A DNA stretch of 64,000 bases from Sinohyriopsis cumingii. Its lineage: Eukaryota > Mollusca > Bivalvia > Unionida > Unionidae. A model generated the notes under the pieces. The model was given only the letters and a program-made list of their open reading frames with translations, searched no databases and was not told the DNA's origin. Of the stretch, positions 6,210 through 61,244 are shown one piece after another (position 1 is the first letter of the stretch; the number at the start of each line of letters is the position of its first letter). The stretch is from contig CM068827.1 of the NCBI GenBank assembly GCA_028554795.2, positions 137,648,268 to 137,712,267 on the forward strand, in the 5' to 3' direction. Both the position numbers and the translations under genes were made by a program.

Positions 6210-7048
6210 TTAATTATCGTTTTCATCGGTATTGTCGATGATTCCCAGCTTCTGTCCAATCCAGCGACACTTGGCTGTAATCTCGTCCTGCATCAGGGAA
6301 AAACACATAGACAAGATCGCCATACCGAAAAGCACGTACACAGAGCCGAGAATAAGCTGAGCCGAAGCTTGCGGGTTGTCAAAATCTGTGCCAGGAACCA
6401 CATCACCAAACCCAATGGTAGCAAGAGTAATAAAGCAGAAATACGCCGACTGAAGCCAATCCCATCCCTCCCAGAGACCAAAGAGAACCGCACCGCCGAA
6501 GATGTAGCCAGCGATGACCACCATCGTCACTGTCAGAGGGACTGTTATTTTATCATTTAAGTCGTCTTCGTCGTCATCATCGCTGTCATCGTCAAGAAGT
6601 ATCTGCTGTTTACGGATTGCTTGATTTCTGTTTGCGATCTCAGCCTTAGTTAGAGTCTTAATATCCAACGGTACAATCTTTGATTTCTTCTCTGTTGGAG
6701 TACTTTTTTCAGTGACGGTTATTTCATTGTTGATGACAGGCTCTGGCGACCTGCTTTGCATCCTTGTAAATTCTGTTGTTGTTGGCGCAGAGCTGGTAAT
6801 GATCGTGGACTTGTCGTTCCAGGCGTGTTCTGGCTCCATTGAGGATGGTTTGATTTGCATCACCTTTGTCTTCCGTTTCCTTCTGCAACAGCCGCAGCAG
6901 CATATCTTAGAATAGATAAAGCGAAAAATGTCGGCCAGGACGTCGCCAATGTTTGCCAGGCACAGCAGCATGAGAGGAATCCCAAGGACAGCGTAAGCAA
7001 TGCAAACCAATCTTCCCCAAAACGTCTTTGGTGCAATGTTGCCATACC
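6210..7048 (-). CDS. K2P channel exon 2 (filter 1 to stop)
   Basis: The acceptor reads TTTTCTCCTCAG|GGTATGGC on the minus strand, with AG at 7050-7049. The first two bases complete the split Gly codon, giving Gly-Tyr-Gly-Asn-Ile-Ala-Pro-Lys. The exon has 839 nt, so 421+839=1260 nt, an exact multiple of three. It encodes M2, the Cys-rich and acidic cytosolic loop, M3, pore 2 (Thr-Ile-Gly-Phe-Gly-Asp), M4 and a short tail ending in Asp-Glu-Asn-Asp-Asn before a TAA at 6212-6210. All of M2-M4 sits in a single exon. Antisense and frame-shifted open frames over this exon are shadows. Confidence 0.93.
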
Positions 7049-10000
7049 CTGAGGAGAAAATGAGAACAGGTAAAAAATAGCGATGGTTGTGAAATTATAT
7101 TTGAATGAAATATTTACAATTCCTAATGTGAAGTTCCAAACGTATACATTCAAATTGATGATCATAATATCTACGCGTTCAACATATCACTATAGCATAC
7201 ACATGACTACATGAATGATCTCACACCTACCTACCTACCTGCCTACCTGCCAATATTCCTACTTTGTCTCATATAGAGTCTTACATATGTTAAGGAACTA
7301 CGTCCATGGCTCCCTATGAGGAATCACATCTTTTATGGCATGACACTGTCCACACTCAACACAGATCGGACCTCCAGTTCCATCCCAGACTGAGACTCAG
7401 GGGTTGTAACCCAAATCTGTTTTATATAGCAACTGGTAACCTGCTTGGAATGAATGGAAATGATGTTTGTGCATTTAAATTTAGACCACCTCCCAGGAGA
7501 CCAAGGAAAAGGAAGAGACCAAACGTTTATAGTGATTGTGCACATGCTTTCCTTATGGGAAAACTAGCGAATGGGGATGGGGCGGATAAACAGGCAGACT
7601 TCAGACGGGCGGACAGAGTGAAGGTATCACGGAATCCATTAGCTAAAACGTTGGATACTCACCTTGACTTTGTTATTTCTTTAACGTAAACTTTCAGGCA
7701 TTTGTTCAGGTTAAGAGCTGCTGTCATATCACTATAACATAAACATGACCACATGCCTGAATTCACACCTACCTACCTATTAATTCACCGACCTTGTCTC
7801 CTACATCGTCTTGAATTCCAAAAAGAACTCTTAGGTTATATAACTTCCATTTGTTTCATTGCTAAATCGCTAAACTTTATCATAGACTATATATTAGAAT
7901 ACCTACGTGATGGTGGTATGTATATTTAATTGGTATTTTTTTCTTGGCTTTTCTTAATGAATATATGCTATTTACATTTGTACTTTCTACTTAACCTTAT
8001 CTAAAATCGAGGTCACTGTGTACCAGACTATGAGTATTAGGTTTTTAAACAAATATTTCATAGCTACAATTTTTCTTTATGTGTGTGGACTAAATATTCA
8101 GAACATAATTAATGTAAACATTTTTATCTTAATCTGAGTACAGCACACTGGAATTCCCACGTGGAAAAATCTAGGCTACCTGATGTTTGCCATGTTCTTT
8201 ATTATAATTTTAGTAATATACCGTATCTGATTTCACAACTTAGAATGTTCTAAAATGAACTTTTGACCTTCATCCTAGTTCTATATGTGTGTCATGGCTT
8301 TTAATATAATAGTGTTTACTTTAGAAATTATTTATTCTTGACCTAACATCATAAAGCAGAATCAGTCTCATTTTTGGGTTCATATTGTCATTTGGGTGGA
8401 ATTATTTATTCAAAATATTATTCAATGGAAGTACAAAGTGCTCATAAATAATTTTCTTGGACAGAAACTTTGATCTGTATTTATAATGTAATCAGACAAG
8501 AACATTATGATATTGTTATACATCATAAGATACGTAGTACATCGTCACAATCGTGGCTATTGACTCATTACCACGTTCGAGATTTCAGTCTCATCAACAA
8601 ATTCATTATAGGAATTTAATTGGGAAACGACTGGAATTTAGTTGGAATTTTATATATTTGGACTTGTGATAGAAAATGTATGACTATTTGGGATTTAATT
8701 TAAAATACTGTAAGTTCTTTTGAAAGTTTCACTTCAATTTGTATTCTAGGGAAACAAGTTATTTGTCGAATTTAACAAAACTTGTTGGTTTTCGATCTAT
8801 TCTGTTACCTAGTTTAAGACCGTAGAGTCGTGATACTGGCAAAGGTGATGAAATTGCTTTTGTGACCTTACTCTTCGGATACACTGGGCGCATTTGAAAA
8901 TCTCTTACTATTAGTGCGCTATACAATAAAGATTTTTAATAGTAAACATTACGTCAGTGCGTCCTCACAGAGTACTCCCGGGGACCCCGAGTGGCCGAGT
9001 GGTCTAAAGCGCCCACCGTTACGGATCACTGCCAGCTCACCTCTGTCTGCGTGGGTTCGATTCTCGGATTCGGCTAATGTGGGTATGTGAGAAAGCTTGC
9101 CAGTAGCTTCTCGTGGGTCGGTGGTTCTTTCCGTGGTTTTACCAGGTTCTTCCTCCACCATTAATACTGGCTGCCATGTATAGCCTATCGTGTGCTGAAA
9201 AATGGCGTTAAACCCTATAACAACAACAGAGTACTCCCCCATTCAGCTTTACATACAGTCTGATTATCCAATTATTAAACGTCATTTTTAATTCATTGCT
9301 TATACGCTCGAAAAATGCACTTCAAACGACATGACGGCTTTCTTATCGTCTGCAACTCATCCAGTTTTTGCTAACGGGATTCAGATAATAATCACTTGGA
9401 TCAGGGAGGGTAACGCTTGGAAGTTGTTCTTCTTCCGAACGTCTGTAACGAAGGCAGATTTTTGCACTTGTGCGTTATCAAGGAGAAGAAGGATACCTCA
9501 CGCACGTGTTCGCGGGCGCTTGAAATAATTGTGTACTTGGTTCAATTTAATATCATCATTTATTCCCACGAGCATGAAAATGCTAATATATTACATTCTA
9601 CAAAAAATATCCCGCAATTAGTCAATATTATATGCGTGCTATAAATAGCATACTATTATGTAAGTCATATATCCTTTTGATTTGTAGCGATAGGTTTCTA
9701 TTCAGTGACCAACAAAACTGTGGTCTACAATAAGGAACAAGCCTTGTAAAACTGCGTATAAGTGAAATACCAGATTTACTCACTGATAAGTAGAGCCAAA
9801 CTGCAAGCAACTAAGATCCTGATCTACTGTCGTATAATCAGATCTGGGTCTATGTTGTATGTTTTACTGATTACTAACAAACTGCACAGACACAGATTTG
9901 CCAGCGCATTATGCGACGGCAGATCTGGGTCTGTGCAATTTGCAGTTAGTGTCGTCTTATAAGTGAGTATAGACGGTACCTTAAATGCAATCAGATTATT

Positions 10001-13000
10001 AGCTTTTCATTACTTTTAAAGTGCATTATAAATACGCTTCTTGTTGGTGATGAGATTAAGCCTTTGTTAGATAATTATATCATCACGGTGTATCAAGTAA
10101 GGTAATAACGTATGGCATTAATTTGGCACTTAAGCTAGTCGATTTGTCGATCAATAGTTGTACAATTTTCCATGGGAAAATCTTTGCACATTACAGATTT
10201 ACTCAGGCCATGATTTAAGTAAGGTAACACTTTAAAACAAAACTGAGTTTGAGATTAGTACATGTAACTATTGACCTGATAGCTTTCATTGTTAATGGGT
10301 TTTGCACGAAAACAAGGACGATAGTGTCAAAGGTACTAGCAAGATCTTCATCCAAATAGTCTAATAGCATGTTGTTTTACTTGTCTTTGTGATAGATACA
10401 AATGTTTCGAATATACATATGTCAATTTATCACCCACTCACCCACCCACTCCGACTTCAGAGAGATGACCTAATCATATGTTGGGTCATCTCTTAGATTT
10501 TCATTTTTTTTTTCAGATTACATGTATATAAGTTATATTACCTTTCTTATACAGTCTCGTATGTTTTGATAGCACATGTGAAAAAATACGATGTTACAAC
10601 GTCACACAGGCTAAAGTGTCAGTTATGCTTTCACTGTTAAACATTATGTCTTACAGGTAGCAAAATCACTGTATTTGGACCTGATGTCAATAGTTAATAA
10701 GTATTGTATGTTGCTGAGGTCCTTATAACAGTTTATAAACTCGTCAGGCACCGTAAGAAAAGTATAGGAACTGAAGTGAAGCTGTGATCCATATACTTTT
10801 CTTGGGGTGAATGACCTGTGCATAAACGACCGCGAGGCCCTTATAGGACCATGCAATATTTGTTAAATATATCAAACTTCATGCATAACTTGTTCTGAGT
10901 AGGCTGATAGAATGAGTTTGATAGGCGTAGGAATACGTCAAAGCCGTTAGGTCAAGACGTATTCATGTGCCATCTCAAACGAGCTATTTTCCAAGACTCG
11001 GCTTTAAAAACAAACGCAGTGCTGTATATATTACATACCCATCTTTAATGCTTTCGCATTATTGTATGACATAATTCAAAATGATTTGGGGTGTATGAAA
11101 ATTAAATCCACTATATCTATAAATATCATCGAGTCGACGTCAAAGTAGACACCTAAGTAGTGTCTGATACCGAAATACGTACTGAACAGCTGAAAACCAT
11201 ATCAATAATTTTAACATTAAATGGGTATGTCATAATGAGTGAGCATCGATCCGTTCGTAAGGCGCTGCAATTTAGCAATGTATAACTTCCTGTAAGAGGC
11301 GTACCTTACCAAAAGAAACGGACCGATCAGTCCATGTCATGTTTAACGGACCGCTCGAGTTACAAGTGACAATGATAGAACTTTATTTTTTTACCCAGGC
11401 TGTCCCAACAGCATATAGAACACAGGACCCATATGTTTTAAGTTCGACGCTCCTGCGTTTGAGCTTTTGCGAATCCCTAAGAAAACAGAGAGAAGAAATG
11501 CAGTTCACTACGTGTTTTCTTCAACAAGTAATTCTTAGAAACAGAACACCTCTTCACCACCACCACAACTTTTGAGTGCACACTTAAAATCAAACAATTA
11601 TTGTTTAAAAACATATAGCGAAGCGTTTGGTACTAGCTGCTAGAAAAAATTGACAATATTAATCAAAATAGAAGAAGAAAAAAAAAAAAAAAATACAACA
11701 CATTTTAAGATATGATAGTTGTTATAGGGAATACTTTAGGGTCAATGGAAATCCCAGTCAAAAAGATCGTGTGACACTTTAGGGGTCAAGAGGAATTTAA
11801 CATGGCGAAATTCAATATTGAGTGAATGGGAATTGAACATAGCGACAAGGGATTGGGCCAGATTAGCATCAATGGGACCTTAATGTTAAAATAGTGTATA
11901 TCAAAACTGGCTTCAATGAGACTTTAACATAGAGACTTTTAAAATGTGTAGGACTATAGAGCGATACGGGATTGGGACTGTTTAGCGACGAGGGATTGGG
12001 ACTGCCTAACGATAAGGGAAATTGTACATGGGACGATATACGGACAATGGGACTTCTATGTCAATTTGGTCGTTTGTACTATACGTAAAAAACGGGAATT
12101 TAACATGGTGGGACTATATACGGACAAAGGAAATTTAATATGGGTGGGACGATATACGCACAATGGAAATTTAACATCGGTAAATTAAAAATGGGTGAGA
12201 CTATAACGGGACAAATGACAATTTAACATATGTTGTGACTCTATAGGGACAAGGGGAATTGAACATAGGGAATGTATAACAACGATTGGATTGGGACTGT
12301 CTAGGCACAAAGGGAAATGAACATGGGACTATCTAAGGACACGTGGACCTTGAACATGGATGAGCCTGTCTACGGAAAATCGGTAAATTGTACAGGGCTT
12401 GTCTAGGGACAAGGGTGTTAGAGGGCCAAGCACAACAGAGACAGAGACACACATATACTAATACAAGACAGAGATTTATATATAAAGCATTATCGAGACC
12501 TGACCGCTTCGGTGGCCTAGTGGTTAGAGCGTCCGCCTCGGATGCGGGAGGTCGCGGGTTCGATCCCCGGATGAGTCATACCAAGACTTACAAAAGTGGT
12601 ACTAACAGCTCCCTCGCTTGGCGCTCAGCATTAAGAGTTAGTGTTAGGAATGGTCGGCCTTGTGTCAGGATAATGTAACTGGGAGAGCAATCATGATACA
12701 TGTCTGCGGCATGATGCCACACTGATAGATATCACTTTAAGCTGCCACACTGCAGACATCGTAGTGATATGACTGAAAAATCGTAATAGCTACGTTAAAA
12801 ATCCAAATCACACAGACACACATAGACCTGACATTATGTTGGCGATGTTCATAAATTTTCATAACGGTAATGATACTATTGTTACAAGCCAAGCATCCTT
12901 ACTTGACCGAGCGGTAGTCAAACCCTGGCGCGATTCCCACTAGAAGTTATAAGTTTACCACAACTTTCCAAAGACTTCCATACAACTTCAGTTGTAAATT

Positions 13001-16000
13001 AAAAAGCCCGACGTGTCCATTCTATGCCTAAATTTTACTCAAATTAACGTAAGACCACAGATAAAACAACCTGCCAAATATATATCAACCGCACATCTGC
13101 ATGGTTTATCTTCATCATGTTTCCGTATCGCCAACCGTTCACGCCGTAGAAAATATACGATTATCCCCTAACACTGGGAACTATTTTAACTCCGCCGTAT
13201 TAGGTCAGTGAATGTAACCTTTCCAAGCACATTTCGCCAATATAACTGCACCCTATTTGCCCCATGGCAACATAAACGGTATTTGCCAAGTCCCTTCTTA
13301 TTTATTCTCTTGTGTAATTTACCGGTGTCTTACCGTAAATACTGCCACTGCAATCACACCACCAATGTACACCACTATATTTTAATATGGACTATCTTAC
13401 GACAGGGACATACATTCGGTTTTGGCCTGAATTCACTACCATGTGAACCATGGCATCATGGAAACTCACTAACACTTCACTCTGTGACATTTGCTCCTAA
13501 TAATTGGTTAATTATTTCGGGCTAGGAATATTTTCATTGCGCCGAATTCCAATAATCACACAAGTAATCACACAAATCTAAGAATTCCTTAAAACGGGGC
13601 GCTATAACCAAATGCGCAAACTCCATATTTATTACACTATAAATAGCTATAATCAAGGACAAGACCAACGCCAAAAATGGATGTGACTAATAGTAACGCA
13701 AAAATGACAAAAATTGCCCCAGAATTTAATGGAAAATAAACATATTCCCGAACATTAGGCTACATTGGGTTAGAATAAAATGGATAAACCTAGTAACTAT
13801 TTATAGTCTCAATTTGTGTGACGATCATGGATAAACATCCATGTATCTATTTATAGCTATAACCTGTTGAACTTTCTAGAAAACCCCACCTTCTGTTTAT
13901 AGCTACAACCGGTGGAGATTCCTATGAAAACCCAACTCTATATTTATAGTCACAATTTATGTGACGATCCTGTTTGAAAACACTAGTATCTATTTATAGT
14001 TACAGTTTGTGGAAATTCCAATTGAAAACCCAAAGTCTACATTTATTGCCTCAAACATTCTACCTTTTGTGAAGTCACTGTACTGGACACTAGGGGAATA
14101 CTGTCAACAGTGTTGCAAGTGGCTGACCGGAATGCTCGCTACAACAGGTAAGTAAGTGAATGAATATGATGGGATAAAGGGAGTTTTATGGGGAAAAACA
14201 AAGACCAACTCATGCACACAAATACACACACATATACACACAAACAAGCGTACGCGCGCACACATACACACCAACACATATACAAGCACATACTTATACA
14301 CATACCTACGCGCACACACAAAAACAATACACATACACAGCCACGTACGCGTACGCACATCAACTAAAAGACCAGCACGCACACACACATACACTTCAAT
14401 CGTTATGTGTTTGCTTATTATGTAAGAGAAGTCGAGAAAGCTCACAAAATAGACTATCTCTTACACTGCCAAAAATACTATGAGAAAAAACGCTAGTGGG
14501 ACAAACAAAGACTAATACATACATACACAATTAAAAGTACGCGCACACACATACACACACAAACAAAATACACACAAGCAAACATACGCGCGCACACAAA
14601 CACACATATAAGCACACACATAGTAACACACTTACTCGCGCGCACAAAAACAGAAAGACCAGTACATACATAGACAAACATTCGCCCACGCACACAAACA
14701 CAAAGACCAATACACACACACACACTTCGTGTCTGTTTGTGTGTGTATTTGTGTGTGTATGTGTTTGTGTGCGTGCGTATGTGTTTATGTGTGTATTGGT
14801 TTTTGTTTGTGTGCGTGTGTGTGCGCGTACGTGCTTGTGTATGTGTGCGCACGTACGTTTGTTTGTGTGAGTGTGTGCGCGTAGGTTTATTGTCTGTGTA
14901 TGTATTGGTCTTTGTCCCTATTAAACAACATTTATCCCTATCAGATTCATAACACCTACCCACCTACCTACAGTAGCGCGTATTCAGGTCAGCCTCTTGC
15001 AACACTGCTGCCATTATTCCAATAGTATCTAGTACAGTGACGTCATTGAAGCTGGAAATTTTGAGATTATAAATATAGACTTGGGTTTTTTTAACAGGTT
15101 GTAGCTATAATTATAGATGCTAGGTTAGTTCTAAGTATGTTCCTAAAAGATGAGATTATAGATAAATAGTAGTTTTTCCAAAGGAATTTCCCACAAGTTG
15201 TAGCTATGAAAATAATACCAGGTTTATGGAAAGGAATTTCCTACCAGTGGTGACTATAAACATATACTAGCGTTTTTCAAAATAATATTTTTGGCAGTGT
15301 AAGAGATAATCTATTTTGTGAGATTTTATCGACTTCTCATACATCATAAGCGAACACATAACGATTGAAATGTATGTATATGTGTTGATCTTTCTATTTG
15401 CGTACGCGTACGTGTATTTATGTGTATCATTCTTTGTGTGCGTGCACGTACGTGTGTGTGTACGTGCACGTGTGTGTGATTATATGTCTGTTTGTATGTA
15501 TAAGTGCGCATGTACGCTTGTTTGTGTGGGTGTGTTTGTGTCTACGAGTTGGTTTTATTTATCCCTTTAAAACTTCCCTTATCCCAATCAAATTAATTTA
15601 CCTACCTACCTACAATAGCGCGCATTCAGGTCAGCCACTTACAATACTGTTGCCATTATTCCCCTTGTGTCCAGTACAGTGACTTCACTAAGGCAAGAAA
15701 TTATGAGGCTATAAATATTGAGTTTGGGTTCTCCATAGGAATTTCTACAAGCTGTAGCTATAAATAGATACTAGGGTTTTCAAACAGGGCCTTCACACCT
15801 GTTGTGACTTTAAATATATAGTAGGTTTTTCATAGGAGTTTCCATCGGTTCTAGCTATAAATAGATAGTGGGGTTTTCATCGCAATTTCAACAGATTATT
15901 GCTATAAATAGATACATGGCCGTTTATCCACGATCGTTACACAAGTTGAGACTATAAATAGTTACTATGTTTATCCATTTAAATCCAACCCAATGCAACC

Positions 16001-17435
16001 TAATGCTCGGGGATATGTTTAGTCTCCTTTAAATTCTTGGACAATTTCGTCATTTTAGCGTTACTTTTATTCACATCCATTTTGGCGCTGGTATTTTCCT
16101 TGATTATAGCTATTTATAGCATCATTACAGTCATCCAACGTTATGAACACAGCCAACATAATTTCAGGTCTAGGTAATGCTTTATATATAAATCTAGGCC
16201 TTGTATTAGTATGTATCTGTTTTTGTCTCTGTTGTGTTTGGCCCTCTACCATCCTTGTCCCCAGACAGGCCCCTTCCAACTTTCCCCATTGTCCATAGAC
16301 AGGCCCATCCATATTCAAGGTCCCCTTTTCCTTAGATAGTCCCATGTTCAATTCCCCTTGTCCCTGGATAGTCCCAATTCATTGTAGCTATACATTCCCT
16401 ATGTTCAAGTCCCCTTGTCCTTATACAGTCCCAACATATGCTAAAGTTTCCCTTGTCCCGATATAGTCCCAATTATGTTAAATTTCCCCATGTTAAATTC
16501 CTATTGTCCGTATATCGTCCCACCCATTTTCAATTTCCCTTTTCTGAATATAGTCCCACCATGTTAAATTCCAGTTCTGTAGGTATAGTACAAACGACCA
16601 AATTTGACAGAAGTCCCTTTTTCTGTAAATCGTCCCATGTTCAATTCCATTTTCGTTAGACAGTCCCAATCCCTTATCGCTCTATAGTCCCACCCATGTT
16701 GAAAGTCCCCATGTTAAATTCCCAATGACGCCACTTTTGATATACAATATTTTAACATTAAGGTCCTATTGACGCTAATATCGCCCAATTCCTTGTCACT
16801 ATGTTCAATTCCCATTCACTCCATGTTAAATATCCCCATGTTAAATTCCCCTTGACCGCAAAGTGTCCCACAACCTTTTTGGACTGTGATTCCCATAGAC
16901 CATAAAATATCCCCTATAACTACTTATGATTTTCTTTCGAAAACGCCCGAGTTCACGTTCTAGCTGAGTAGGTCTGTAGTAAAACTACAAAGATAGCTAT
17001 GTACTCTTTCTTACCGATAGTTGTGATGACGGTGACGGAGAACATAAGGGAACCTGCCCAGGACCACGCATACACAGGGCCGTTTTCTTCTCCATATCGG
17101 TCGCAGTCGCTCCCATCATAACCAATGGCTAAGGCGTTGTTCCGAAATGTCTGCAGAATGCTCCGAAATTGTATCATTTGTGCTTCCAAATCTAATGGAT
17201 TCGATTCTATGACTTTCCGGAAATTTTCTAAAGTTTTGTTCTCCATTGGATCGTATTCTTTCTGAGACTCGTAGCAAATTATCACTTCATTGGCCTTCTC
17301 TAGATGCTGGAAAATGAAGCCTCCGGCAACTGTATAAAGCACAACCATACCGCATAGGCCGATGTGAGAAAACATGAACTTCATAATTTTCTTGCAACAC
17401 CCATCAAGTCTTCGTACTTTAACTGGAGACCCCAT
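6210..17435 (-). CDS. Two-pore-domain (K2P) potassium channel, TWK/TRESK-like, two coding exons
   Basis: The spliced frame (17435-17015 joined to 7048-6210) gives 419 residues plus a stop. K2P channels are dimeric leak K+ channels of the plasma membrane. The layout is complete: M1 about 24-46; extracellular cap loop with a sequon at N66 and cysteines C54 and C111; pore 1 with filter TTIGYGN at 138-144; M2 about 153-175; a long cytosolic loop about 182-306; M3 about 307-333; pore 2 with filter TIGFGD at 351-356; M4 about 371-393; a short tail of about 26 residues. The long M2-M3 loop with a short C-tail resembles TRESK (KCNK18) and many invertebrate TWK channels. The loop holds a Cys cluster (190-195) and an Asp-rich run (293-303). 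I chose the ATG at 17435 because it is the first in-frame ATG after an in-frame stop at 17547-17549 and has a strong context (GAAATGG). The family is certain; the orthologue is inferred, so no symbol is given. An extra 5' noncoding exon cannot be excluded. Confidence 0.93.
7183..7290 (+). repeat. Direct repeat, left copy
   Basis: Similar to 7722-7825: ATATCACTATA, CATAAACATGACCACATG-like sequence, CACACCTACCTACCTA and CTTTGTCTC / CCTTGTCTCCTACAT occur in the same order. The pair brackets about 430 bp inside the K2P intron. That middle segment holds a 127-codon + strand open frame (7306-7689) with a basic Pro/Arg stretch, which I do not accept as a gene. Confidence 0.5.
7722..7825 (+). repeat. 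Direct repeat, right copy
   Basis: Partner of 7183-7290. The arrangement could come from a local duplication or from the ends of an unrecognised element. Confidence 0.5.
7826..8339. other. Intronic sequence, nothing recognised
   Basis: AT-rich K2P intron sequence without repeats that I could match. Confidence 0.5.
8340..8838 (+). repeat. Degraded LTR-like dispersed repeat, copy 2
   Basis: Matches the 34822-35328 copy over CATTTGGGTGGAATTATTTATTC, the TTCTTGGACA stretch, GGATTTAATTTAAAATACTGTAAGTTCTTTT, TCTAGGGAAACAAGTTATTT and AAACTTGTTGGTTTTCGATC. It is diverged and the ends are blurred; the terminal GTAACA is decayed to CGTGATA. It lies inside the K2P intron. Confidence 0.45.
8980..9226 (+). 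mobile_element. tRNA-derived SINE, Leu/Ser-type head, Meta-like tail
   Basis: A 247-bp insertion bounded by a perfect 12-bp target-site duplication CAGAGTACTCCC (8968-8979 and 9227-9238). The head carries an A box (GTGGCCGAGTGGTCTAAAGCG), a long variable arm as in Leu/Ser tRNA, and a B box (GGTTCGATTCT). The body (CCAGGTTCTTCCTCCACCAT, then AATACTGGCTGCC) and the 3' end (GGCGTTAAACCC then AACAAC repeats) resemble the Meta-domain SINEs known from molluscs. This resemblance is from memory. The intact duplication suggests a fairly young insertion into the K2P intron, in sense opposite to the gene. Confidence 0.85.
9239..9778. other. Intronic sequence, nothing recognised
   Basis: K2P intron sequence with short chance reading frames only. 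Confidence 0.5.
9779..9967. mobile_element. Palindromic MITE, TA-flanked (family P, copy 1)
   Basis: The ends are inverted: TA|CTCACTGATAAG on the left and CTTATAAGTGAG|TA on the right. The inverted similarity continues inward through AACTGCA, AGACCC and GATCTG blocks, nearly to the centre near 9880. TA duplications fit Tc1/mariner-type insertion. A second diverged member with the same order of blocks lies at 44219-44378. No coding capacity. It lies inside the K2P intron. Confidence 0.7.
9968..11710. other. Intronic sequence with one short hairpin
   Basis: No gene. A hairpin of about 13 bp (AGAGATGACC..GGTCATCTCT, one T-G pair, 7-nt loop) lies at 10461-10493. A run of A lies at about 11676-11692. 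Nothing else was recognised. Confidence 0.5.
12505..12823 (+). mobile_element. tRNA-derived SINE (family S), copy 1, with target-site duplication
   Basis: A perfect 9-bp duplication AGACCTGAC flanks it (12496-12504 and 12824-12832). The corresponding site in the right arm of the foldback is uninterrupted (reverse complement of about 16170), so the insertion boundaries are certain. The tRNA-like head has an A box (GGCCTAGTGGTTAGAGCG) and a B box (GGTTCGATCCC). The body contains GGTCGGCC, then TGTCAGGATAATGTAACTGGG, then a TCTGCGGCATGATG segment. It ends AAAAATCC and a CACA-rich tail. The middle resembles the Nin-DC-type SINE core, from memory. Confidence 0.92.
12880..13636. mobile_element. LTR-like insertion, TG..CA ends, copy 1
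   Basis: A 757-bp insertion in the left arm of the foldback. It starts TGTTACAAGCC and ends TTTATTACA, with a 4-bp duplication CTAT on both sides (12876-12879 and 13637-13640). A second copy is at 34080-34815. Shared blocks include TTGACCGAGCGG, ACCCTGGCGC, AACGTGTCCATTCTAT and GGGGCGCT followed by AGCCAAATGCGCA. TG..CA ends, a short target duplication and no coding frame suggest a solo LTR. The open frames within it do not match between the two copies. Confidence 0.65.
14176..14925. repeat. CA/TG-rich core of the foldback, with its own local palindrome
   Basis: CACA-rich DNA with scattered CGCGCG and TACG steps turns into TG-rich DNA at about 14733 (CACACACACTTCGTGTCTGTTTGTGTG). The strands are complementary over about 200 bp on each side. 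This gives many overlapping open frames rich in His/Thr or Cys/Val on both strands; none is a gene. Confidence 0.8.
16925..17014. other. Unique intron sequence between foldback and exon 1
   Basis: About 90 bp separate the right end of the foldback from the donor site of K2P exon 1. The large element therefore sits almost against the exon. Confidence 0.6.
17015..17435 (-). CDS. K2P channel exon 1 (N-terminus, M1, cap, first part of pore 1)
   Basis: This exon carries 421 nt: 140 codons plus one base. It encodes a short N-terminus with a Cys-Cys-Lys-Lys stretch, M1, the extracellular cap loop and pore helix 1, ending at Thr-Thr-Ile-G. The splice donor on the minus strand reads ATCG|GTAAGAAAG, a good consensus, with GT at 17014-17013. 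Reading on into the intron soon meets a stop, so splicing is required. Phase is 1. The minus-strand sequence from 17522 to 17436 is open but lacks any ATG, which fits 5' UTR. Confidence 0.92.
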
Positions 17436-18240
17436 TTCAGCGTCTTTCAGAATATGATATGTATCGGAAATGAGCAAAATATCAATCTTATGCCCACTGG
17501 AAGTTTGGATATGTTTTTTCAAACGTAAGCAGGCATGTTTGAACAGTCACGTTCCTTTTTAATACACCTTTTTTGATGACCATCAATCAGGGTGATCACT
17601 AACTGATGGCGTAAAATCTCAGACGATTAGCAGTAAGGTCAACTGCAAAACAATAATAATAATAATAATAATAATACAATGAAAATATGAACTAAGAAAA
17701 TATCAGCGAAAACAACAGGTTGGCGACCAGCTCACATTACTAACTTCTACCGTGTCATAAAAATCTTATAAACATTCCCTTAAGACACGATTATTAGTAA
17801 TAATTATATTTACGACACAATTATTGGTTTTAGTTATATTTAACCAGTACTTAAATATTCTCTGTTTTCTGGTATTTAACAATGGAAACCTCTGAACAGA
17901 CGATATCATGCATACCAATATCTTCCTTAAAATCGTTTATTCGATTTTTCTCGTTTTCTGGGGCTAGATTGAAACTCAAAACTACGCAAACATAACTAAG
18001 ATTAATAGTAAAGTAACTTTGCAGCAGATGAGAGATGGTTTAAATGTAAACGGTTTTACCAATTTTGAATTTATGCTTTGCGATGATATATGGAATTCGG
18101 CTGCTTGAAGCATACCGTTGCTATACAAAGTCTGACCTAGGACGGAACATTTATTAACAATTTCGCTAGCTTCATTTTGAGCTTTATTTAACACCATTTC
18201 TAAATAATGCAACCTTGAATTTCTCAGTATTAACTCTTCC
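17436..18240. other. 5' flank of the K2P gene
   Basis: Minus-strand sequence upstream of the start codon. The first 87 nt are open but have no ATG, and an in-frame stop lies at 17547-17549. An (AAT)n run lies at about 17652-17676. A promoter probably lies here or further upstream, but I cannot place a TATA box or initiator with confidence. Confidence 0.4.
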
Positions 18241-18525
18241 CCTCAGGTGGCCTAGTAGTTAGAGCGTCCACCTCGGATGCGGCAAGTCGCGGGTTCAAAA
18301 CCCAGCCGAGTCATGCCAAAGACTTCTAAAATGGTACTAGCAGCTGCCTCGCTTGGCGCTCATCATTAAGAGGATATTGTTAGGACTGTTCGGTCTGTTG
18401 TCATGACAATGTGTTTGGGTGGAACGTTGAGCTACATATCTGCGGCACGAGGCCTTAGTACCAGACATCACTATAAACTGCCACAATGTAGCAATATGAC
18501 TGATATAAAGCTAAGTTAAAAATCC

Positions 18526-18566
<41 letters not shown>
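18241..18566 (+). mobile_element. SINE family S, copy 2, with (CA)n tail
   Basis: The head GGTGGCCTAGTAGTTAGAGCG and B box GGGTTCAAAACCC are both mutated. The body carries TTAGGACTGTTCGG, TGTCATGACAATGTG and a TCTGCGGCACGAGG segment. It ends in AAAAATCCAAATAA and then (AC)n at 18534-18566. It is more diverged than the copies at 12505 and 27245. Confidence 0.9.
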
Positions 18567-19625: not shown

Positions 19626-19628
19626 GGA

Positions 19629-19732
19629 CAGCTCCAGTGGCCTAGTGGTTAGAGCGTCCTCCTCGGATGCGGGAGGTCGTGGGTTCGATACCAAAGACTT
19701 TAAAAAAATGGTACTAACAGCTGCCTCGCTTT
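19629..19732 (+). mobile_element. SINE family S, copy 3, truncated
   Basis: Only the tRNA-like head and the first body segment remain: GGCCTAGTGGTTAGAGCG, GGGTTCGATACC, ATGGTACTAACAGCTGCCTCGCT. The segment after the B box (CCGGCCGAGTC) is deleted. It abuts the end of the minisatellite at 19625. Confidence 0.88.
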
Positions 19733-27126: not shown

Positions 27127-27244
27127 TCCATGCATGCATACATGCATACATACATACATACATGCATGCATACATACATACATACACACATACACACATA
27201 CACACACAGACATACAGACATACATACATACATACATACATACA
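27127..27244 (+). repeat. (CATA)n / (TACA)n microsatellite
   Basis: Tetranucleotide run of CATA, CATG and CACA steps directly upstream of a SINE. A second TACA/CAGA run (about 27565-27665) follows the SINE. Confidence 0.95.
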
Positions 27245-27560
27245 ACCGCTCCGGTGGCCTAGTGGTTAGAGCGTCCGCCTCGGATGCGGGAGGTCGTGGG
27301 TTCGATCCCCGGCCGAGTCATACCAGAGACTTAAAAAATGGTACTAACAGCTGCCTCGCTTGGCGTTCAGCATTAAGAGGTTAGTGTTAGGACTGGTCGG
27401 CCTGGTGTCAGGACAATGTGACTGGGTGGGACATCATGCTTCATGTCTGCGGCATGATGCCCCAGTGCTAGACATCACTATAAACTGCCACATTGCAGAC
27501 ATCGTAGCGATATGACTGAAAAATTGTTAAAGCTACGTTAAAAATCAATATCACATCACA
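27245..27560 (+). mobile_element. SINE family S, copy 4 (best-preserved)
   Basis: Intact A box (GGCCTAGTGGTTAGAGCG) and B box (GGTTCGATCCC), then GGTACTAACAGCTGCCTCGC, GGACTGGTCGGCCTGG, TGTCAGGACAATGTGACTGGG, TCTGCGGCATGATGCC, GACATCACTATAAACTGCC and the end AGCTACGTTAAAAATC. It appears the closest to a consensus among the six copies. It sits between TACA microsatellites, so a target duplication cannot be defined. Confidence 0.93.
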
Positions 27561-33820: not shown

Positions 33821-34079
33821 TGACTGTTTTAATTTTATTCGTCGTAGACAACTAATACAAATCTAGAATATTACCCGTATGTATGAGTTTAAAATCAGCA
33901 GTATTATTAATAGAAGAAGTAAATATGTTTATTTAGGTAAAGGTTTTGGAATTTCCTTAATGAATTTTACAGGTTATTGTTTTTATTTTGTAAACATCAG
34001 GATCATTGTAGGTAATGTTTGTTTTTAAAAAAATAGAAAATGCTAGTCGTGACCTGAGGTCAAATAGAGAACTATATAC
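31758..34079. other. No gene; three microsatellites
   Basis: Contains (CA)n at about 33404-33423, (TGTA)n at about 33613-33643 and (CT)n at about 33780-33819. The remaining sequence has only chance-length reading frames. Confidence 0.5.
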
Positions 34080-34815
34080 TGTTACAAACCAGGGGTATTT
34101 GCTTTGACCGAGCGGTGTCACACCCTGGCGCAATTCCGCTAGAAGTCATAAGTTAAGAAGCTTCTGTTGTAAATTAGAAAACCTAACGTGTCCATTCTAT
34201 AAATAATTTTACTCTAATCAGTACATGACCACAGATCTCACAACATTCAAATTACCTATCAACCAGACATATGCATGGTTTCTCTTCATCAACTTTCCGT
34301 ACTATCAGCATTTCACTCCGTAAACCTATACAACTTCCCTTACACAGGGAACTATTTTTACTACGCCATCTTAGGCCAGTAAAATCATGGTTTCGAGCCA
34401 CATTTCGCCTGTAAATTTTCATTACATTTGCCACCATGGCGACATTAACGGTATCTGCCGACAATAAAGATGTCCCTTCTTGTTTATTCCATTGTGTAAT
34501 TTTCCAGTCTTTAACCATAAATGCTGCACCTGCAGTCACACAACCAATGTACACTACTAGATTTTAATAGGGACCATGGAACGACAAAGACACTAATGCC
34601 GCTCTGACCTGAATTCACCTAAAGTAAACCATAGCATCATGGAAACTCACTAAGACATCACTCCGTGACGTTAGCTCCTAGTAATTTGCTAATTATTTCA
34701 GGCTAAGAAATATTTCCACAGGACCTAATTCCAATCAAACAAGTAATCACAATAATCTAAAAATTCTTTAAAATGGGGCGCTGTAGCCAAATGCGCATAC
34801 TCCAAATTTATTACA
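34080..34815. mobile_element. LTR-like insertion, TG..CA ends, copy 2
   Basis: Same element as 12880-13636, about 736 bp, starting TGTTACAAACC and ending TTTATTACA. The flanks ATAC (34076-34079) and ATAT (34816-34819) may be a decayed 4-bp duplication. The two copies run collinear along their length, which fixes both boundaries. A 100-codon minus-strand frame here is not conserved in the other copy. Confidence 0.6.
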
Positions 34816-34821
34816 ATATAT

Positions 34822-35328: not shown

Positions 35329-36781
35329 GTAATCAGATCTGAAACTCATCTGGCATTTTATATCAACTTAACATTAACTCAGACAACGTGTGCCCACCTC
35401 TCCGATTTCTTTGGTCTGAAGCTTCATCTAACGCTAATCCTAAAGATTTTGTTTATTTTTAATACAAAAATAAGTTTAAATTAAAAAGAAAAACATTTCT
35501 GCATTAGTATGTGCTAACGATAAATGTTTTCCCAGCGTGACGCAGGTCCCCGTTACTGGATCTTTTCTTTGGTGTTATATTAAGGACTTAAAAAACGTAA
35601 ACTAATAAACCTAATTGTTAATCTGTATTAGAACAAACATCAATCATTTCAATTGACTATCTAATTCCTCGTTTATTCTGAATTTATTGAAATCACAATA
35701 GTGTCAGAAATTATCAATATTTTTCATTCCTTCGGTTAAACTACATTAGTAATAAATTTTATAACAAATACTTTTTCATTAATGAAAAGTAATGCACCAA
35801 TATGACCGCGTTCTCTTACCCTTTCTATGAGTTCATCTTAACTCAAGTGACGTGTTGTTTCAATCAAGAACCTTACTTTCAAAGAGATGACGGTTTAATT
35901 CGTTATCATGCCAACAGATGCCATAAAATGTTTAATTGTCCTCCCTGTTGAAATATGAAAACGATTTTGTGGGTCACCTCTGAATTAACCTTAACATGTC
36001 ACATGTCAATTAGTATCCCTTTTATTAAATGAAATAACAATAATTTCATTAGATTTAAAATAAAATTAACTGGGATAATCTGTTCGAGATATTGAATAAG
36101 GAGCTCAACTACATTCTTCCCTTTTAAGTGAAAAAGCAATTTTGAATCCTAAGAAAATATGTGAGAATAAAGCTGAATGTTGAACAATGGTATACCAGTC
36201 GTATTAAAAATTATAGTAAATTATGGGATCGACTGAAGTCACAATATATCAAGAGCGGAAGTCCCTACCATTCTAAAAGTATAGCAACTGACAAAACGTC
36301 AACAATCGTAAATAATATGCAAAGAAAAATATAGAAATATGGACATTTCTTTATGGAAATCACGTGATTATTTGAAATTAAGACGATCATTAAAGACTAA
36401 TGCATGCTCAATTCTTAAACAAGATAATGGATATGAAACTAAATACTTTTACGATTGTGAGACTGCTGGTTGTCTCAGGGACTTATTTACATCTATATAT
36501 ACTGTACATGATACCCAGATTCAGCTCCAGTGCAAAACGAACCAGGATATATTTTATTGGTATTCAAGAACAAGATATTCTTGCCAAAATACAAAATATT
36601 CCAACTAGTAACGTAAGCGTCTATGACAGAATTATCTATAAAATACTCAACGTCACAACGTCTGTGGTTATTAGGTCACTATACTTACTGTTTAATAAAT
36701 CACTCGGAGAACACTGTTTCGCAAAAACCTTGTAAAATTCAGTCATTATACCTGTTTTCAGAAGTCGTATGTGTGTTTTAG
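35329..36781. other. No gene recognised
   Basis: Two overlapping open frames (36339-36608 and 36400-36735, 89 and 111 codons, both in the + strand) show no domain that I recognise. They stand just upstream of an RT remnant but do not join to it in a recognisable way. Confidence 0.35.
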
Positions 36782-37092
36782 TGATTTGGAGTTTTAACGT
36801 AGCTTTAACAATTTTTCGGTCATATCGCTACGATGTCTGCAATGTGGCAATTTCTAGTGACATGAAGCAGTGATGCATCATACTGCAGACATGGAGTATC
36901 ATGTCACAACCAGTCACATTATCCCGACACCAGGTCGATTAGTCGTAGCACTAACCTTTTAATGCTGAACGCCAAGCGAGGAAGCTGCTGCTAATATCAT
37001 TTTTATGTCTTTGGTATGACTCGTTCGTGGTTCGAAACCTCGACCTCACGCATCCGAGGCGGACACTCTAACCACTTAGGCCAGAGAAGCCG
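36782..37092 (-). mobile_element. SINE family S, copy 5 (reverse orientation)
   Basis: The reverse complement shows the mutated head GGCCTAAGTGGTTAGAGTG, GCATGCGTGAGG-like sequence, CAGCAGCTTCCTCGCTTGGC, TTAAAAGGTTAGTGCTACG, CCTGGTGTCGGGATAATGTG and the end AAATTGTTAAAGCTACG. The B box is decayed. Confidence 0.88.
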
Positions 37093-37169
37093 TCGTGTGA
37101 GGAGTAATTCTAACAATCATGGACTACTGTTACAATTGTGTTGTGCAGGAAAACATTTGGAAAGTGTTC

Positions 37170-39249: not shown

Positions 39250-40195
39250 GATAGTAAAAGCCCATTATGCACCTCATATCATCTTATATGTATCAAAAGT
39301 CCACTATGTACCTTGTATCATTTTATAGGTAGCAAAAGTCCATTATGTACCTTGTATCATATTATAGGTATCAAAAGTCTATTATGTACCTTGTATCATA
39401 TTATAGGTAGCAAAAGCTCATTATGTAACTTGTATCATATTATAGGTATCAACATTCCATTATTTACCTTGTATCATATAACAGGTAGTAAAGGCGCGTT
39501 ATGTACCTTGCATCATATACAGGTAGCAAAATTCCATTATGTACCTTCATCAAATTATAGCTCGCAAAAGCTCAGTATGTACCTTGTATCATATTATAGG
39601 TTTCAAAGTATATTATTTAACTTGTATCATATTATAGGTAGCAAAAGTCCATTATGTACCTTGCTTCATATTATAGCTCGCAAAAGTCCATTATGTACTT
39701 TGCATCATATTATAGGTTGCAACATTATATTATGCAACTTGTATCATATTATAGCTAGCAAAAACTTATTATGTGCCTTGTATTATATTATAGGTAGCAA
39801 ATTTCCACTATGTACATTGTATCATATTATAGGTAGCAAAAGCTCATTATGTACCTTGTATCATTACAGGCAGCAAAAGGCCATTATGTACTTTGTATCA
39901 TATTACAGGCAGCAAAAACTCATTATGTACATTGTATCATATTATAGGTAGCAAATTTACATTAGGTACATTGTATCATATTACAGGTAACAAAAGCCCA
40001 TTATGTACTTTGTATCATATTATAGGTAGCAAATGTCCATTATGTAGATTGTATCATATTACAGGTTGCAAAAGCCCATTATGTACTTTTTGTAAAATTA
40101 CAGGTAGAAACAGCCCATTATTTACATTGTATCATACTATAGGTAGCAAAAGCCCATTATGTACCTTGTATCATATTACAGATAGAAAGAAGTCC
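39250..40195 (+). repeat. 39-bp minisatellite, about 24 copies, open in one frame
   Basis: The unit CATTATGTACCTTGTATCAT then ATTATAGGTAGCAAAAGTC repeats every 39 bp with small indels. As 39 is divisible by three, the + strand keeps long frames (39313-39951 and 39893-40294) made of a 13-residue repeat like YHIIGSKSPLCTL. The break between the two frames and the lack of non-repeat coding sequence argue against a gene. It runs directly into an (AT)n tract. Confidence 0.95.
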
Positions 40196-40197
40196 GT

Positions 40198-40290
<93 letters not shown>
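40198..40290. repeat. (AT)n microsatellite, about 90 bp
   Basis: Uninterrupted AT dinucleotides at the 3' end of the 39-bp minisatellite. Confidence 0.98.
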
Positions 40291-40293
<3 letters not shown>

Positions 40294-48700: not shown

Positions 48701-48906
48701 CATGAATCTCTAAGCTAATGATTTCTCTGTTCTAGCGATACGTCACTTCATTATAAAGCTGATATAAATGCAGACATTTTCTGAATCAAATATTCGTCGC
48801 ATATAATGAAATGGTATTCGAATATGTATCGATATTAATGAAGGTAACAAATTCGTTCTCTTTCTTTGACTAATATGATAGTCATTTATAGTCCTCCACC
48901 AGAAAC
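48701..48906. other. No feature recognised
   Basis: Short spacer between minisatellite and SINE. Confidence 0.5.
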
Positions 48907-49208
48907 AGCTCCGGCGGCATAGTGGTTAGAGCGTCCGCCTCGGATGCGGGAGGTCGCGGGTTTGAACCCTAGCCGAGTCACACCAAAGACTTATAAAAAT
49001 GGTACTTACAGCTGCCTCGCTAGGCGCTCAGCATTAAGAGGTTAGTGTTAGGAATGGCCGGCCTGGTGTCAGGATAAATGTGACTGGGTGGGACATCTTG
49101 CTACATGTCTGCGGCATGATATGATGACCCAGTGCTATAATGCGGACAACATAGCGATATGACTGAAACATTTTTCAAGCTTCTTAAAATTCCAGATCAC
49201 ACACACAC
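48907..49208 (+). mobile_element. SINE family S, copy 6, with CA tail
   Basis: The head CGGCGGCATAGTGGTTAGAG and B box GGTTTGAACCC are slightly mutated. The body has GGTTAGTGTTAGGAATGGCC, TGTCAGGATAAATGTGACTG and a TCTGCGGCATGATATGATGA segment with a small duplication. The end CCAGATC runs into (AC)n. Confidence 0.92.
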
Positions 49209-51039
49209 ATGCAGGTCATCTCATTCTACTGCAGGTCATCTCAATCTAATTAAAAATTAAATATTAGGACCTTGGAATGAATTTTGTTGCAGGATATGAA
49301 TTAAAACTTAAATGATTGTGTGTTAAATTTTATTTTGTCTTCAACTCATTACAAGCATAAAAAGTCCCTTAGTGCTAACGACGGACGGTAAAGAAGGGCA
49401 GGAAACTATATTACCTGTTCAATTAAAGGCAGTTACTATCACAGCTACTCTGGGAAATGATTTGTTTGCAATCAAACTTGCTTTGGCATGTGACTGATTT
49501 AATTTAATTAATTGGATACATTGATTTCAGGTGTTCGGAATTTGTCGTACTAATATATATCGGACATATCCGTAGGGGCTAACGTTTCCACCAACAGTTA
49601 TGAAATTGGACATTGGGATTTTCTGTCCAGCCTTAATAAAGGCAAAATCAGAATAGATAGAATATATAGACCTGTACGAGTGACTGACTTGATAATACAC
49701 AAGATTACATTACGATGGCTGTGAATGACCATGTGACTTCTGTAAACAGTATAATGTGTTTTTTACCAGGGGCATACATGGGAAGTCGTTCCGCGCCTTA
49801 ACCGAGTTTTGGAAGAGACCTTCAGGTTTCATGAGCAAAAAAAGGGATTCCTAGCAAGCAATTAAGTCAGAAACGTGAAATAATCCCAGCTCCAAGTAAG
49901 ATATATGCAGGAAACAATGACGTTGTAATAGCGCACACACTAGCAAGCTTTATTGTAAGAGGAAATTGATGTACCCTGCAGCTTAAATGGTTCTATACCA
50001 AAATTCATGTCATTTTGGTCTAAATATATCTTACTGACATGACTGTAGACGTAGCATGACTGACTTGTAAGAAAATAAAGAAATAGGTTGTATCATATTT
50101 TTTTAGCATACTGGTAATTCCGTTACTGTATGTCTTTGAAACTTACACAAAATACTAAATACGGAAATATATTAGAGTCATCTTTCCGAGCAATGATGAC
50201 CGGGGATTTTCGGGACAGATTACAACTGTTCGCGACGAACAAGTATCCAACAACTGTTCACAGAATAATAAAAACTCTGGTTGACTGATACATAAGGTAT
50301 TTGTTCACATTGATATAATCTATATTGTATCAACTTACCAGATTGCTAGAGCATAATGAATAGAAATGGTGATGTTACGCCCAATGTGACCGTTCAGAAT
50401 ATTGAAATCATTATTAAGTTATGATTCGGAGTTTTTATTCCTTGTGATTTAGAAGGTTTGAAGTTGTTCCCTTGTTAACCAGTTCGACAATGCATAATTT
50501 ATTTCTTTTACAAAAGCCCTCTGTAGATGAACAAATGAATATTCGAACACCAGCCGTCTACTCAGATATTCGCAGAATCATATTCTGATTCGAATGTTCG
50601 GATATTCGTTTAATTTCTACTTCCGCATAAATTATAGGGGACGGTAATCCATTAAACGCAGGTATTCTTAAATACTTGAATAGTAATTTATAATGATAAC
50701 TAATATGAGGTGCATATACATAGGAGCTTAAAGAAACAAGTTATAACAGCTAAAGTTTAATCAGTGTTCAATAAACCCTGAAAAGCATTTAATTGTGACT
50801 GGGTTTCGTTTTGCTTCTCTCTTTTATCCTAAGTTAATAAATACAGCAATGAAAAGTAGGTCTACAGGGACAGTGTGCGATTTACACATTTATTTTAATT
50901 TTTAGACTTTACACACCTATAACCATTTTTCAGCATTTTACTTGATTTACTTTTGCAAATGCGGTATTTTGTTTTTAACGTATGCAGAAGTTTGACAATT
51001 TAATTTTTTTTCTTCACATTTAATGATGCTACAAACGAC
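49209..51039. other. No gene recognised
   Basis: AT-rich sequence with a direct repeat of GCAGGTCATCTCA at about 49211-49240. Nothing else was seen. Confidence 0.5.
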
Positions 51040-60565: not shown

Positions 60566-61244
60566 AAAGTCGTGGACAGCAAACTAAAACTATTTTTATG
60601 TCGTCCAGAATCGCCATTTAATCGTACTACTGCTACAGTACGCCACTTTGTACCAGTGATGTCCACATGCGTCAGGTAAGGGGTCATTCGGGGTACAGTT
60701 TTCTCAATGGGAACTTCATTTCGTATATATCATAAAATGATATTTGATAAAGACATAGCAAGAATCTATTTTGGTCTCATTTTTCCTGTAGATATGAACA
60801 TTTATCGAACATTCCTCAAATCTTTGTTATGTACACAAGTAACGTTTGTCAAAATACCTTCCTTATAAAGACTGTTGGATGCAGAATGACCTCTGTCCTT
60901 TGGAGTTCTTCACTGTGTAGAAAGCAATATGTGCCAGTACATCTATTTGCTTTGATATTCATTGGCATTAAATCGGTCCGTCAAGATAGGCAGAGGGACA
61001 GAGTACACACGGATACAATTAATTGTATCATAACATTATACAAGCAAGCAGAAGTATATCATGGTCACATCATTACTGTTAGTTACATGATTCATACTTT
61101 CTTGTATTCTTGTTTTTTTTTTATAAAGTGCCCTTCTTCGTTTCACGAGATCTTATCGTGAACCGAGTAGGATGCCTCATAAATGCATTTCAGAACGAAG
61201 GTGTTTTAAAGACATTGATGTCAATGTTTTTCTGTCCTGTTTCT
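60566..61244. other. No gene recognised
   Basis: A 110-codon + strand frame (60829-61161) has no domain that I recognise. The sequence is otherwise unremarkable and leads into the large minisatellite. Confidence 0.4.

What the first reader, a model, noticed from the sequence alone, without database searches (positions are those of the whole stretch)
11717..16924. 5.2-kb foldback element in the K2P intron, possibly a new TU/FB-like family
Seen: inverted termini (AGTTGTTATAGGG / AGTAGTTATAGGGG), collinear inverted similarity over about 2 kb on each side, short sub-repeats (GGGACAA, GAATTTAACATGGG) inside the arms, a CA/TG core and TATGAT on both flanks. Known: foldback elements such as sea-urchin TU and Drosophila FB have long inverted repeats built from short tandem modules. 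Inference: this is a nonautonomous foldback transposon. The arms have diverged by roughly a fifth in the stretch I aligned, so it is not young.
Basis: partly seen in the sequence, partly recalled or inferred. Interest (0 to 1): 0.7.

Follow-up and report, generated by a model that had tools for sequence, protein, structure and literature searches.

The report
Gene-free foldback relic of a Polinton
A 5.2-kb hairpin-like mobile element in an intron is made of two long end-repeats of a virus-like Polinton (Maverick) transposon with no genes left between them, which would add a virus-like lineage to the transposon groups that give rise to 'foldback' elements.

Summary
Positions 11717-16924 form a two-armed inverted repeat (arms about 81-82% identical) flanked by a perfect 6-bp duplication, TATGAT, 90 bp inside a K2P pore intron. 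It belongs to a dispersed family. The TU/FB kinship is not supported. In the same genome, about 17-kb elements carrying DNA-polymerase-B genes begin with a homologous end: both ends of 10 sampled pairs read AGTAGTTA...TAACTACT, and 9 of 10 have perfect 6-bp duplications. Published vertebrate Mavericks have that end motif and duplication length (PMC8097293). All 4 complete foldbacks among the copies I fetched have perfect 6-bp duplications. The left arm holds two later insertions (12504-12819, 12880-13636). Arm-to-arm K2P distance is 0.172. Best reading: an old, non-autonomous Polinton/Maverick derivative consisting only of terminal repeats, probably moved in trans by Polinton enzymes. The direct parent was not seen intact. 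Foldbacks whose papers I checked belong to Mutator or P; seven searches showed none assigned to Polinton. Whether it arose by internal deletion or by copy-back replication is open.

The parts
11711..11716 (.). left target-site duplication TATGAT
11717..12503 (+). left arm, outer part: Maverick-type terminus, then GGGACAA / GGGAATTTAACATGG modules
   Evidence: inverted match to 16164-16924, 82.0%; genome copies
12504..12819 (+). later insertion in the left arm, tRNA-derived SINE (not part of the original element); AGACCTGA on both sides
   Evidence: RF00005 at 12506-12578; further copies in the window; flanks
12820..12879 (+). left arm continues
   Evidence: inverted match to 16116-16175, 81.7%
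12880..13636 (+). later insertion in the left arm, about 757-bp dispersed repeat
   Evidence: second copy at 34077-34820; L014 6321-7047, 90%
13637..14497 (+). left arm, inner part: M, A and S modules with a CA-rich stretch
   Evidence: inverted match to 15266-16119, 80.8%; module map
14498..14724 (+). centre, CA-rich side
14725..15265 (-). centre, TG-rich side, with a second A module that has no counterpart in the left arm
   Evidence: direct match 14740-15278 to 15371-15928, 68%; module map
15266..16924 (-). right arm, read inward from 16924; terminal ACTACT at 16919-16924
16925..16930 (.). right target-site duplication TATGAT

Best explanation
The element is a non-autonomous derivative of a Polinton/Maverick transposon: two long Polinton terminal inverted repeats with no coding DNA between them. 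SHOWN: ends homologous to those of polymerase-B Polintons of this genome, 6-bp duplications, dispersed copies, no Polinton gene found inside. INFERRED: it was mobilised in trans. Polinton proteins would have recognised its ends, replicated or excised the linear DNA, and the retroviral-type integrase would have joined it into a 6-bp staggered cut, here in a K2P intron. INFERRED: the copies date from one old burst; since then each copy has gained point changes, insertions (here a SINE and a 757-bp repeat) and changes in the number of inner A/S modules.
For: (1) Five of six fetched PolB-side Polinton ends (L034-L038) align with base 1 of the foldback arm (64-72% over 89-143 columns), and in 8 of the 10 comparisons among them their own similarity starts within 2 bases of that point (2 start 10-29 bases earlier). 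(2) 13 inverted pairs 15.0-18.2 kb apart among 40 scored places of 3439 candidates. Of 10 pairs whose ends I fetched, 10 of 10 left ends read AGTAGTTAAGTGGGATACTATAGG, 10 of 10 right ends finish TTAACTACT, and 9 of 10 have perfect 6-bp duplications. Foldback copies typically start AGTAGTTATAGGGGATACTTT; L064 is intermediate. (3) Perfect 6-bp duplications at 4 of 4 complete foldbacks: window TATGAT, L013 TGTAAT, L019 GATGAC (scan), L015/L016 TTCGTA (read by eye). (4) The same arm type bounds a 36.5-kb element with TCTGTC at both ends (L025/L027, by eye) that keeps a diverged zinc-knuckle/PolB-N-like stretch beside its arm. (5) In L009, L010, L014, L015/L016 and L022 the arm runs straight into one shared sequence, X; its first 100 bases match the Polinton ends L034-L038 (53-72 columns, 72-77%, E 5e-4 to 3e-6). 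(6) PF03175 at all 75 scored places of 21,499 candidates, 0 of 14 control genomes. (7) Vertebrate Mavericks: (AGT)2//(ACT)2 ends and 6-bp duplications (PMC8097293). (8) Star-like arm tree, 13 of 17 inner branches unresolved; first-position A modules cluster (6 changes against 11.7 shuffled, 0 of 500 as low).
Against: The element encodes nothing, so enzyme use cannot be read from it. Identity to the young Polinton ends is modest. The central junction differs among window, L013 and L019, which also fits separate deletions. Second-position A modules do not cluster beyond chance (110 of 500 shuffles as low). PolB in L020 and L025 probably belongs to younger Polintons nested beside or in the old ones, so the direct parent with these very arms was not seen intact. 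The capsid domain in L022 (E=5e-10) lies 6 kb from the arm and its link to it is unproven. The window's left end is AGTTGT; of 8 complete-foldback ends 4 are exactly AGTAGT.
Confidence: 0.8

Rival explanations
1. Deletion in place: full Polintons inserted first, and each later lost its genes at its own site, leaving the two terminal repeats. The foldbacks are then corpses, not a mobile family.
For: Central junctions differ among window, L013 and L019; L014 and L015/L016 keep sequence X in the middle. L025/L027 still spans 36.5 kb. L017 keeps a gene-like frame between two ends with TACGAA.
Against: Complete loss of all coding DNA in three complete copies (window, L013, L019) would have to stop at or inside the repeats each time. 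First-position A modules cluster across copies and the arm tree is star-like, as expected for copies of similar masters.
Confidence: 0.15
2. A true TU/FB, Mutator or P (Galileo-type) foldback, related to Polinton ends only by chance.
For: Long internally repetitive arms with variable module number, as in Galileo, Tetris and Tm1 (passages).
Against: 6-bp duplication at 4 of 4 complete copies, not 8-10 bp; Maverick end motif; end homology with PolB elements in the same genome.
Confidence: 0.02
3. Another integrase-type superfamily with 6-bp duplications, IS3EU/GingerRoot.
For: They also make 6-bp duplications (PMC10045372, passages).
Against: Their ends are TA..TA or TG..CA, not AGT..ACT; Ginger has 4-5 bp and TGT ends (PMC2836005, passages).
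Confidence: 0.02
4. Assembly artefact or local inverted duplication without transposition.
For: None found at this locus; inverted duplications can arise in assemblies.
Against: Arms differ by about 15% of aligned sites, perfect 6-bp duplication, dispersed copies with the same ends.
Confidence: 0.01

Closest known systems
Polinton/Maverick transposons (virus-like, about 17 kb here)
   Same: 6-bp duplication, (AGT)2//(ACT)2-type ends, long terminal inverted repeats, homologous ends in the same genome
   Different: no polymerase, integrase or capsid gene; 5.2 kb; arms of about 1.7 kb without insertions, against about 351 bp inferred for the young Polintons from partial matches and 46-1447 bp in vertebrates
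Galileo of Drosophila (P superfamily), two-TIR copies
   Same: non-autonomous copies made only of long, internally repetitive terminal repeats of variable length (PMC3573991, passages)
   Different: different superfamily, enzyme and duplication; P duplications of 7-8 bp are recalled
Tm1 and Tetris foldbacks (Mutator or assigned to it)
   Same: composite arms, variable module number, nested insertions, mostly no transposase
   Different: 8-10 bp duplications; other ends and lineage
TU (sea urchin) and FB (Drosophila) foldbacks
   Same: overall foldback shape with short modules
   Different: duplication length (TU and FB values recalled, not checked) and lineage
Snapback defective genomes of adeno-associated virus
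   Same: palindromic, gene-poor derivatives that depend on a helper (PMC8235507, start of abstract in a listing)
   Different: analogy only; no such origin is shown here

Membership tests
Polinton/Maverick | 6-bp target-site duplication | tested here: met
   4 of 4 complete foldbacks; 9 of 10 young Polintons of the genome
Polinton/Maverick | (AGT)2//(ACT)2 end motif | tested here: met
   right end exact, left end AGTTGT with one change; 4 of 8 complete-foldback ends exact; motif from PMC8097293
Polinton/Maverick | terminal repeats homologous to those of PolB-bearing elements | tested here: met
   L034-L038, 5 of 6 fetched
Polinton/Maverick | own protein-primed PolB and integrase genes | tested here: not met
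   only low-complexity long frames inside 11717-16924; hence filed as a derivative, not as a Polinton proper
Polinton/Maverick | size of about 13-25 kb | tested here: not met
   5.2 kb; 12.7-24.6 kb in vertebrates
TU/FB foldback group (structural) | long inverted repeats built of short modules | tested here: met
Mutator-type foldbacks (Tm1, Tetris) | 8-10 bp target-site duplication | tested here: not met
   6 bp; 8-10 bp printed
IS3EU/GingerRoot | TA..TA or TG..CA ends | tested here: not met
   AGT..ACT ends; definition
Polinton/Maverick | mobilisation by Polinton enzymes | not testable with these tools
   inference from ends and duplications only

The most novel reading that the evidence does not exclude
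The foldbacks are satellite or defective genomes of Polinton viruses: palindromic linear DNA made by copy-back of one end during protein-primed replication, carrying only origins and integrase sites, replicated and perhaps packaged with helper proteins, then integrated. A head-to-head PolB palindrome with 99.7% identical arms in contig C119 would fit such copy-back, unless it is an assembly artefact.
Probability: 0.2. Interest if true: 0.75.

Novelty: new variant of a known kind. Interest (0 to 1): 0.5.

Why it matters
Foldback elements are a structural class reached from different transposon lineages; the passages I saw name Mutator and P. Adding Polinton, a self-replicating virus-like element, would show that the shape also arises where movement runs through protein-primed replication. 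It would also give a gene-free substrate for asking which parts of a Polinton end are needed for movement, and it offers a fossil record of helper-dependent Polintons in a genome that also holds many young, open-frame Polintons.

Tried and rejected
Phage collection, distant DNA search with the element: no match. PHROGs: polymerase families for L020, nothing for L017, L022 or the L025 N-terminal frame. Sequence search of solved structures with the L020 polymerase: none up to E 0.1. Pfam did not identify the frame in L017 that I take for a major capsid protein from recall; it reported only a below-cut-off OCRL-like hit, E=3e-4. I first took L020 and L025 as simple autonomous parents; two searches showed a second, different Polinton start inside, so I dropped that. 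L039 looked like a palindromic Polinton end; its 93.5% arms and a terminus at 2073 fit a nested insertion, so I do not use it as evidence for copy-back. Guessed ends of the C13 and C8 pairs were not found in L060-L063. L015 and L017 left flanks: not clearly homologous (alignment scores above all 200 shuffles at 30 and 300 bases, not at 60 and 120). Rows dropped: arm tree used 20 of 26 matches, those of at least 380 letters; A-module tree 35 rows, matches under 150 query bases and overlapping L015/L016 duplicates left out. The species was not identified.

Full report
What is there. Window 11717-16924 is a two-armed inverted repeat. The arms match in three collinear blocks, 82.0%, 81.7% and 80.8% identical, which is 84.7% of 1642 aligned sites and K2P 0.172 when the two later insertions are left out and gaps are not counted. 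TATGAT stands directly outside both ends. The left arm is broken by a tRNA-type SINE (12504-12819; Rfam tRNA match; AGACCTGA on both sides) and by a 757-bp repeat (12880-13636) with a second copy at 34077-34820. The arms are modular: outer modules O1/O2, then M, A and S. The window reads O M A S, then S A S A M O.

Setting. The window is C4:137648268-137712267 of a 2.9-Gb genome in 1138 contigs; the animal was not identified. The element lies in the intron that splits the K2P selectivity filter (..TTI / GYGN): the exon ends at about 17015 and the element's right end is 90 bp into the intron. Pfam supports the channel through 6213-7094(-) (Ion_trans_2, E=4e-30) and reports nothing for the 16956-17546(-) frame.

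Other copies. The left outer arm matched 63 stretches, with 40 of 1657 candidates scored; the right outer arm 50 stretches, with 40 of 2671 scored. Counts are therefore lower bounds. Among the 20 stretches that I fetched (L009-L028), complete foldbacks besides the window are L013 (2.4 kb), L019 (5.8 kb) and L015/L016 (9.7 kb). All four have perfect 6-bp duplications: TATGAT, TGTAAT, GATGAC, TTCGTA. The first three came out of an unguided scan; TTCGTA was read by eye across two loci. L013 has a second arm end with a similar flank (86% over 79 bp) further right, a local duplication. The remaining stretches hold one arm or fragments.

Lineage. In this genome PF03175 (protein-primed polymerase B) rings at all 75 scored places of 21,499 candidates, open frames 648-1363 aa, some with a stop inside the match, and in 0 of 14 control genomes. 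I fetched six PolB-side ends. In five (L034-L038) base 1 of the foldback arm aligns at the point where the Polintons' own similarity begins: within 2 bases in 8 of 10 comparisons, 10-29 bases earlier in two. The sixth, L039, is a special case, read as a nested insertion. A search with one such end gave 13 inverted pairs 15.0-18.2 kb apart and one 36.7 kb apart among 40 scored places of 3439 candidates; partial matches suggest a repeat of about 351 bp. I fetched both ends of 10 pairs (16.9-17.5 kb): 10 of 10 left ends read AGTAGTTAAGTGGGATACTATAGG, 10 of 10 right ends finish TTAACTACT, and 9 of 10 have perfect 6-bp duplications. Vertebrate Mavericks are printed with (AGT)2//(ACT)2 ends and 6-bp duplications (PMC8097293; passages, section 7). 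Foldback copies start AGTAGTTATAGGGGATACTTT or close to it, and L064 is intermediate.

Links to old Polintons with these arms. L025/L027 share this arm type and TCTGTC across 36.5 kb (by eye), and the two arms are sisters in the tree (100/97). L025 keeps a diverged zinc-knuckle/PolB-N-like stretch beside its arm (59% DNA similarity over 819 columns; zinc-knuckle E=1e-6). The better PolB frames in L020 and L025 lie behind a second Polinton start and probably belong to younger nested elements. In L009, L010, L014, L015/L016 and L022 the arm runs into the same sequence X; the first 100 bases of X match L034-L038 weakly but repeatedly. L022 has a double-jelly-roll domain (E=5e-10) about 6 kb from its arm, link unproven. 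L017 has TACGAA at both ends of 4.95 kb around a frame that I take for a capsid protein from recall; Pfam did not support it, and its right flank is 92% identical to that of L016, so it is not an independent case.

How it works. Shown: ends, duplications, dispersal, lack of genes. Inferred: movement in trans by Polinton enzymes, the integrase making the 6-bp stagger. The arm tree is star-like (13 of 17 inner branches unresolved); the window's arms are not sisters, while those of L019 are weakly so (88/91). That fits one old burst with near-identical arms at the time. First-position A modules cluster across copies (0 of 500 shuffles as low); second-position modules do not (110 of 500). Central junctions differ among window, L013 and L019, and L014 and L015/L016 keep X, so separate deletions remain a serious rival.

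Known and new. Foldback shape has arisen in Mutator-type elements (Tm1, and Tetris by assignment) and in P (Galileo) (passages); [quoted passage not shown] Seven paper searches on Polinton/Maverick terms showed no paper that describes a Polinton foldback; I saw listings for most and passages of a few, subscription journals are mostly missing, and Repbase was not available. So 'new variant of a known kind' rests on that limited search.

Most novel reading. The copies could be defective, helper-dependent Polinton genomes made by copy-back of one end. A head-to-head PolB palindrome in C119 has arms 99.7% identical over 1930 columns and a 794-bp centre without a recognisable arm (one AGTAGT hexamer occurs in the centre on the minus strand). 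It may be an assembly artefact and belongs to another Polinton lineage (about 80% similar to L034).

Noticed in passing
own genome: Very large Polinton population: 21,499 first-look candidates for PF03175; all 75 scored places are over the cut-off with open frames of 648-1363 aa.
   Followed up: partly
L065 (C119:553900-558560): Head-to-head PolB palindrome, arms 99.7% identical over 1930 columns with a 794-bp centre; copy-back product, inverted duplication or assembly artefact.
   Followed up: partly
L039: Two PolB-side Polinton ends face each other, arms 93.5% identical, a terminus at 2073; read as one Polinton nested in another.
   Followed up: partly
window 12504-12819, 18239-18548, 19627-19731, 27172-27555, 36768-37111, 48905-49209: Copies of one tRNA-derived SINE family; Rfam tRNA matches at 12506 and 27248, ARAGORN only at 27248.
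   Followed up: partly
window 12880-13636 and 34077-34820; L014 6321-7047: A 757-bp dispersed repeat of unknown kind, about 75-90% identical.
   Followed up: no
L020 5840 and L025 about 5850: A second Polinton start with different flanks inside or beside an older Polinton at both loci, as if old Polintons attract new ones.
   Followed up: partly
L016 and L017 (C4, about 194 kb apart): Right arm and right flank shared at 92% over 513 columns while the left flanks are not clearly alike, yet both show the hexamer TTCGTA at both ends.
   Followed up: partly
window 61127-63322: Long stretch of low-complexity tandem sequence open in all three plus frames.
   Followed up: no
window 39250-40291: Tandem array with a roughly 15-residue repeat in the plus frame.
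   Followed up: no
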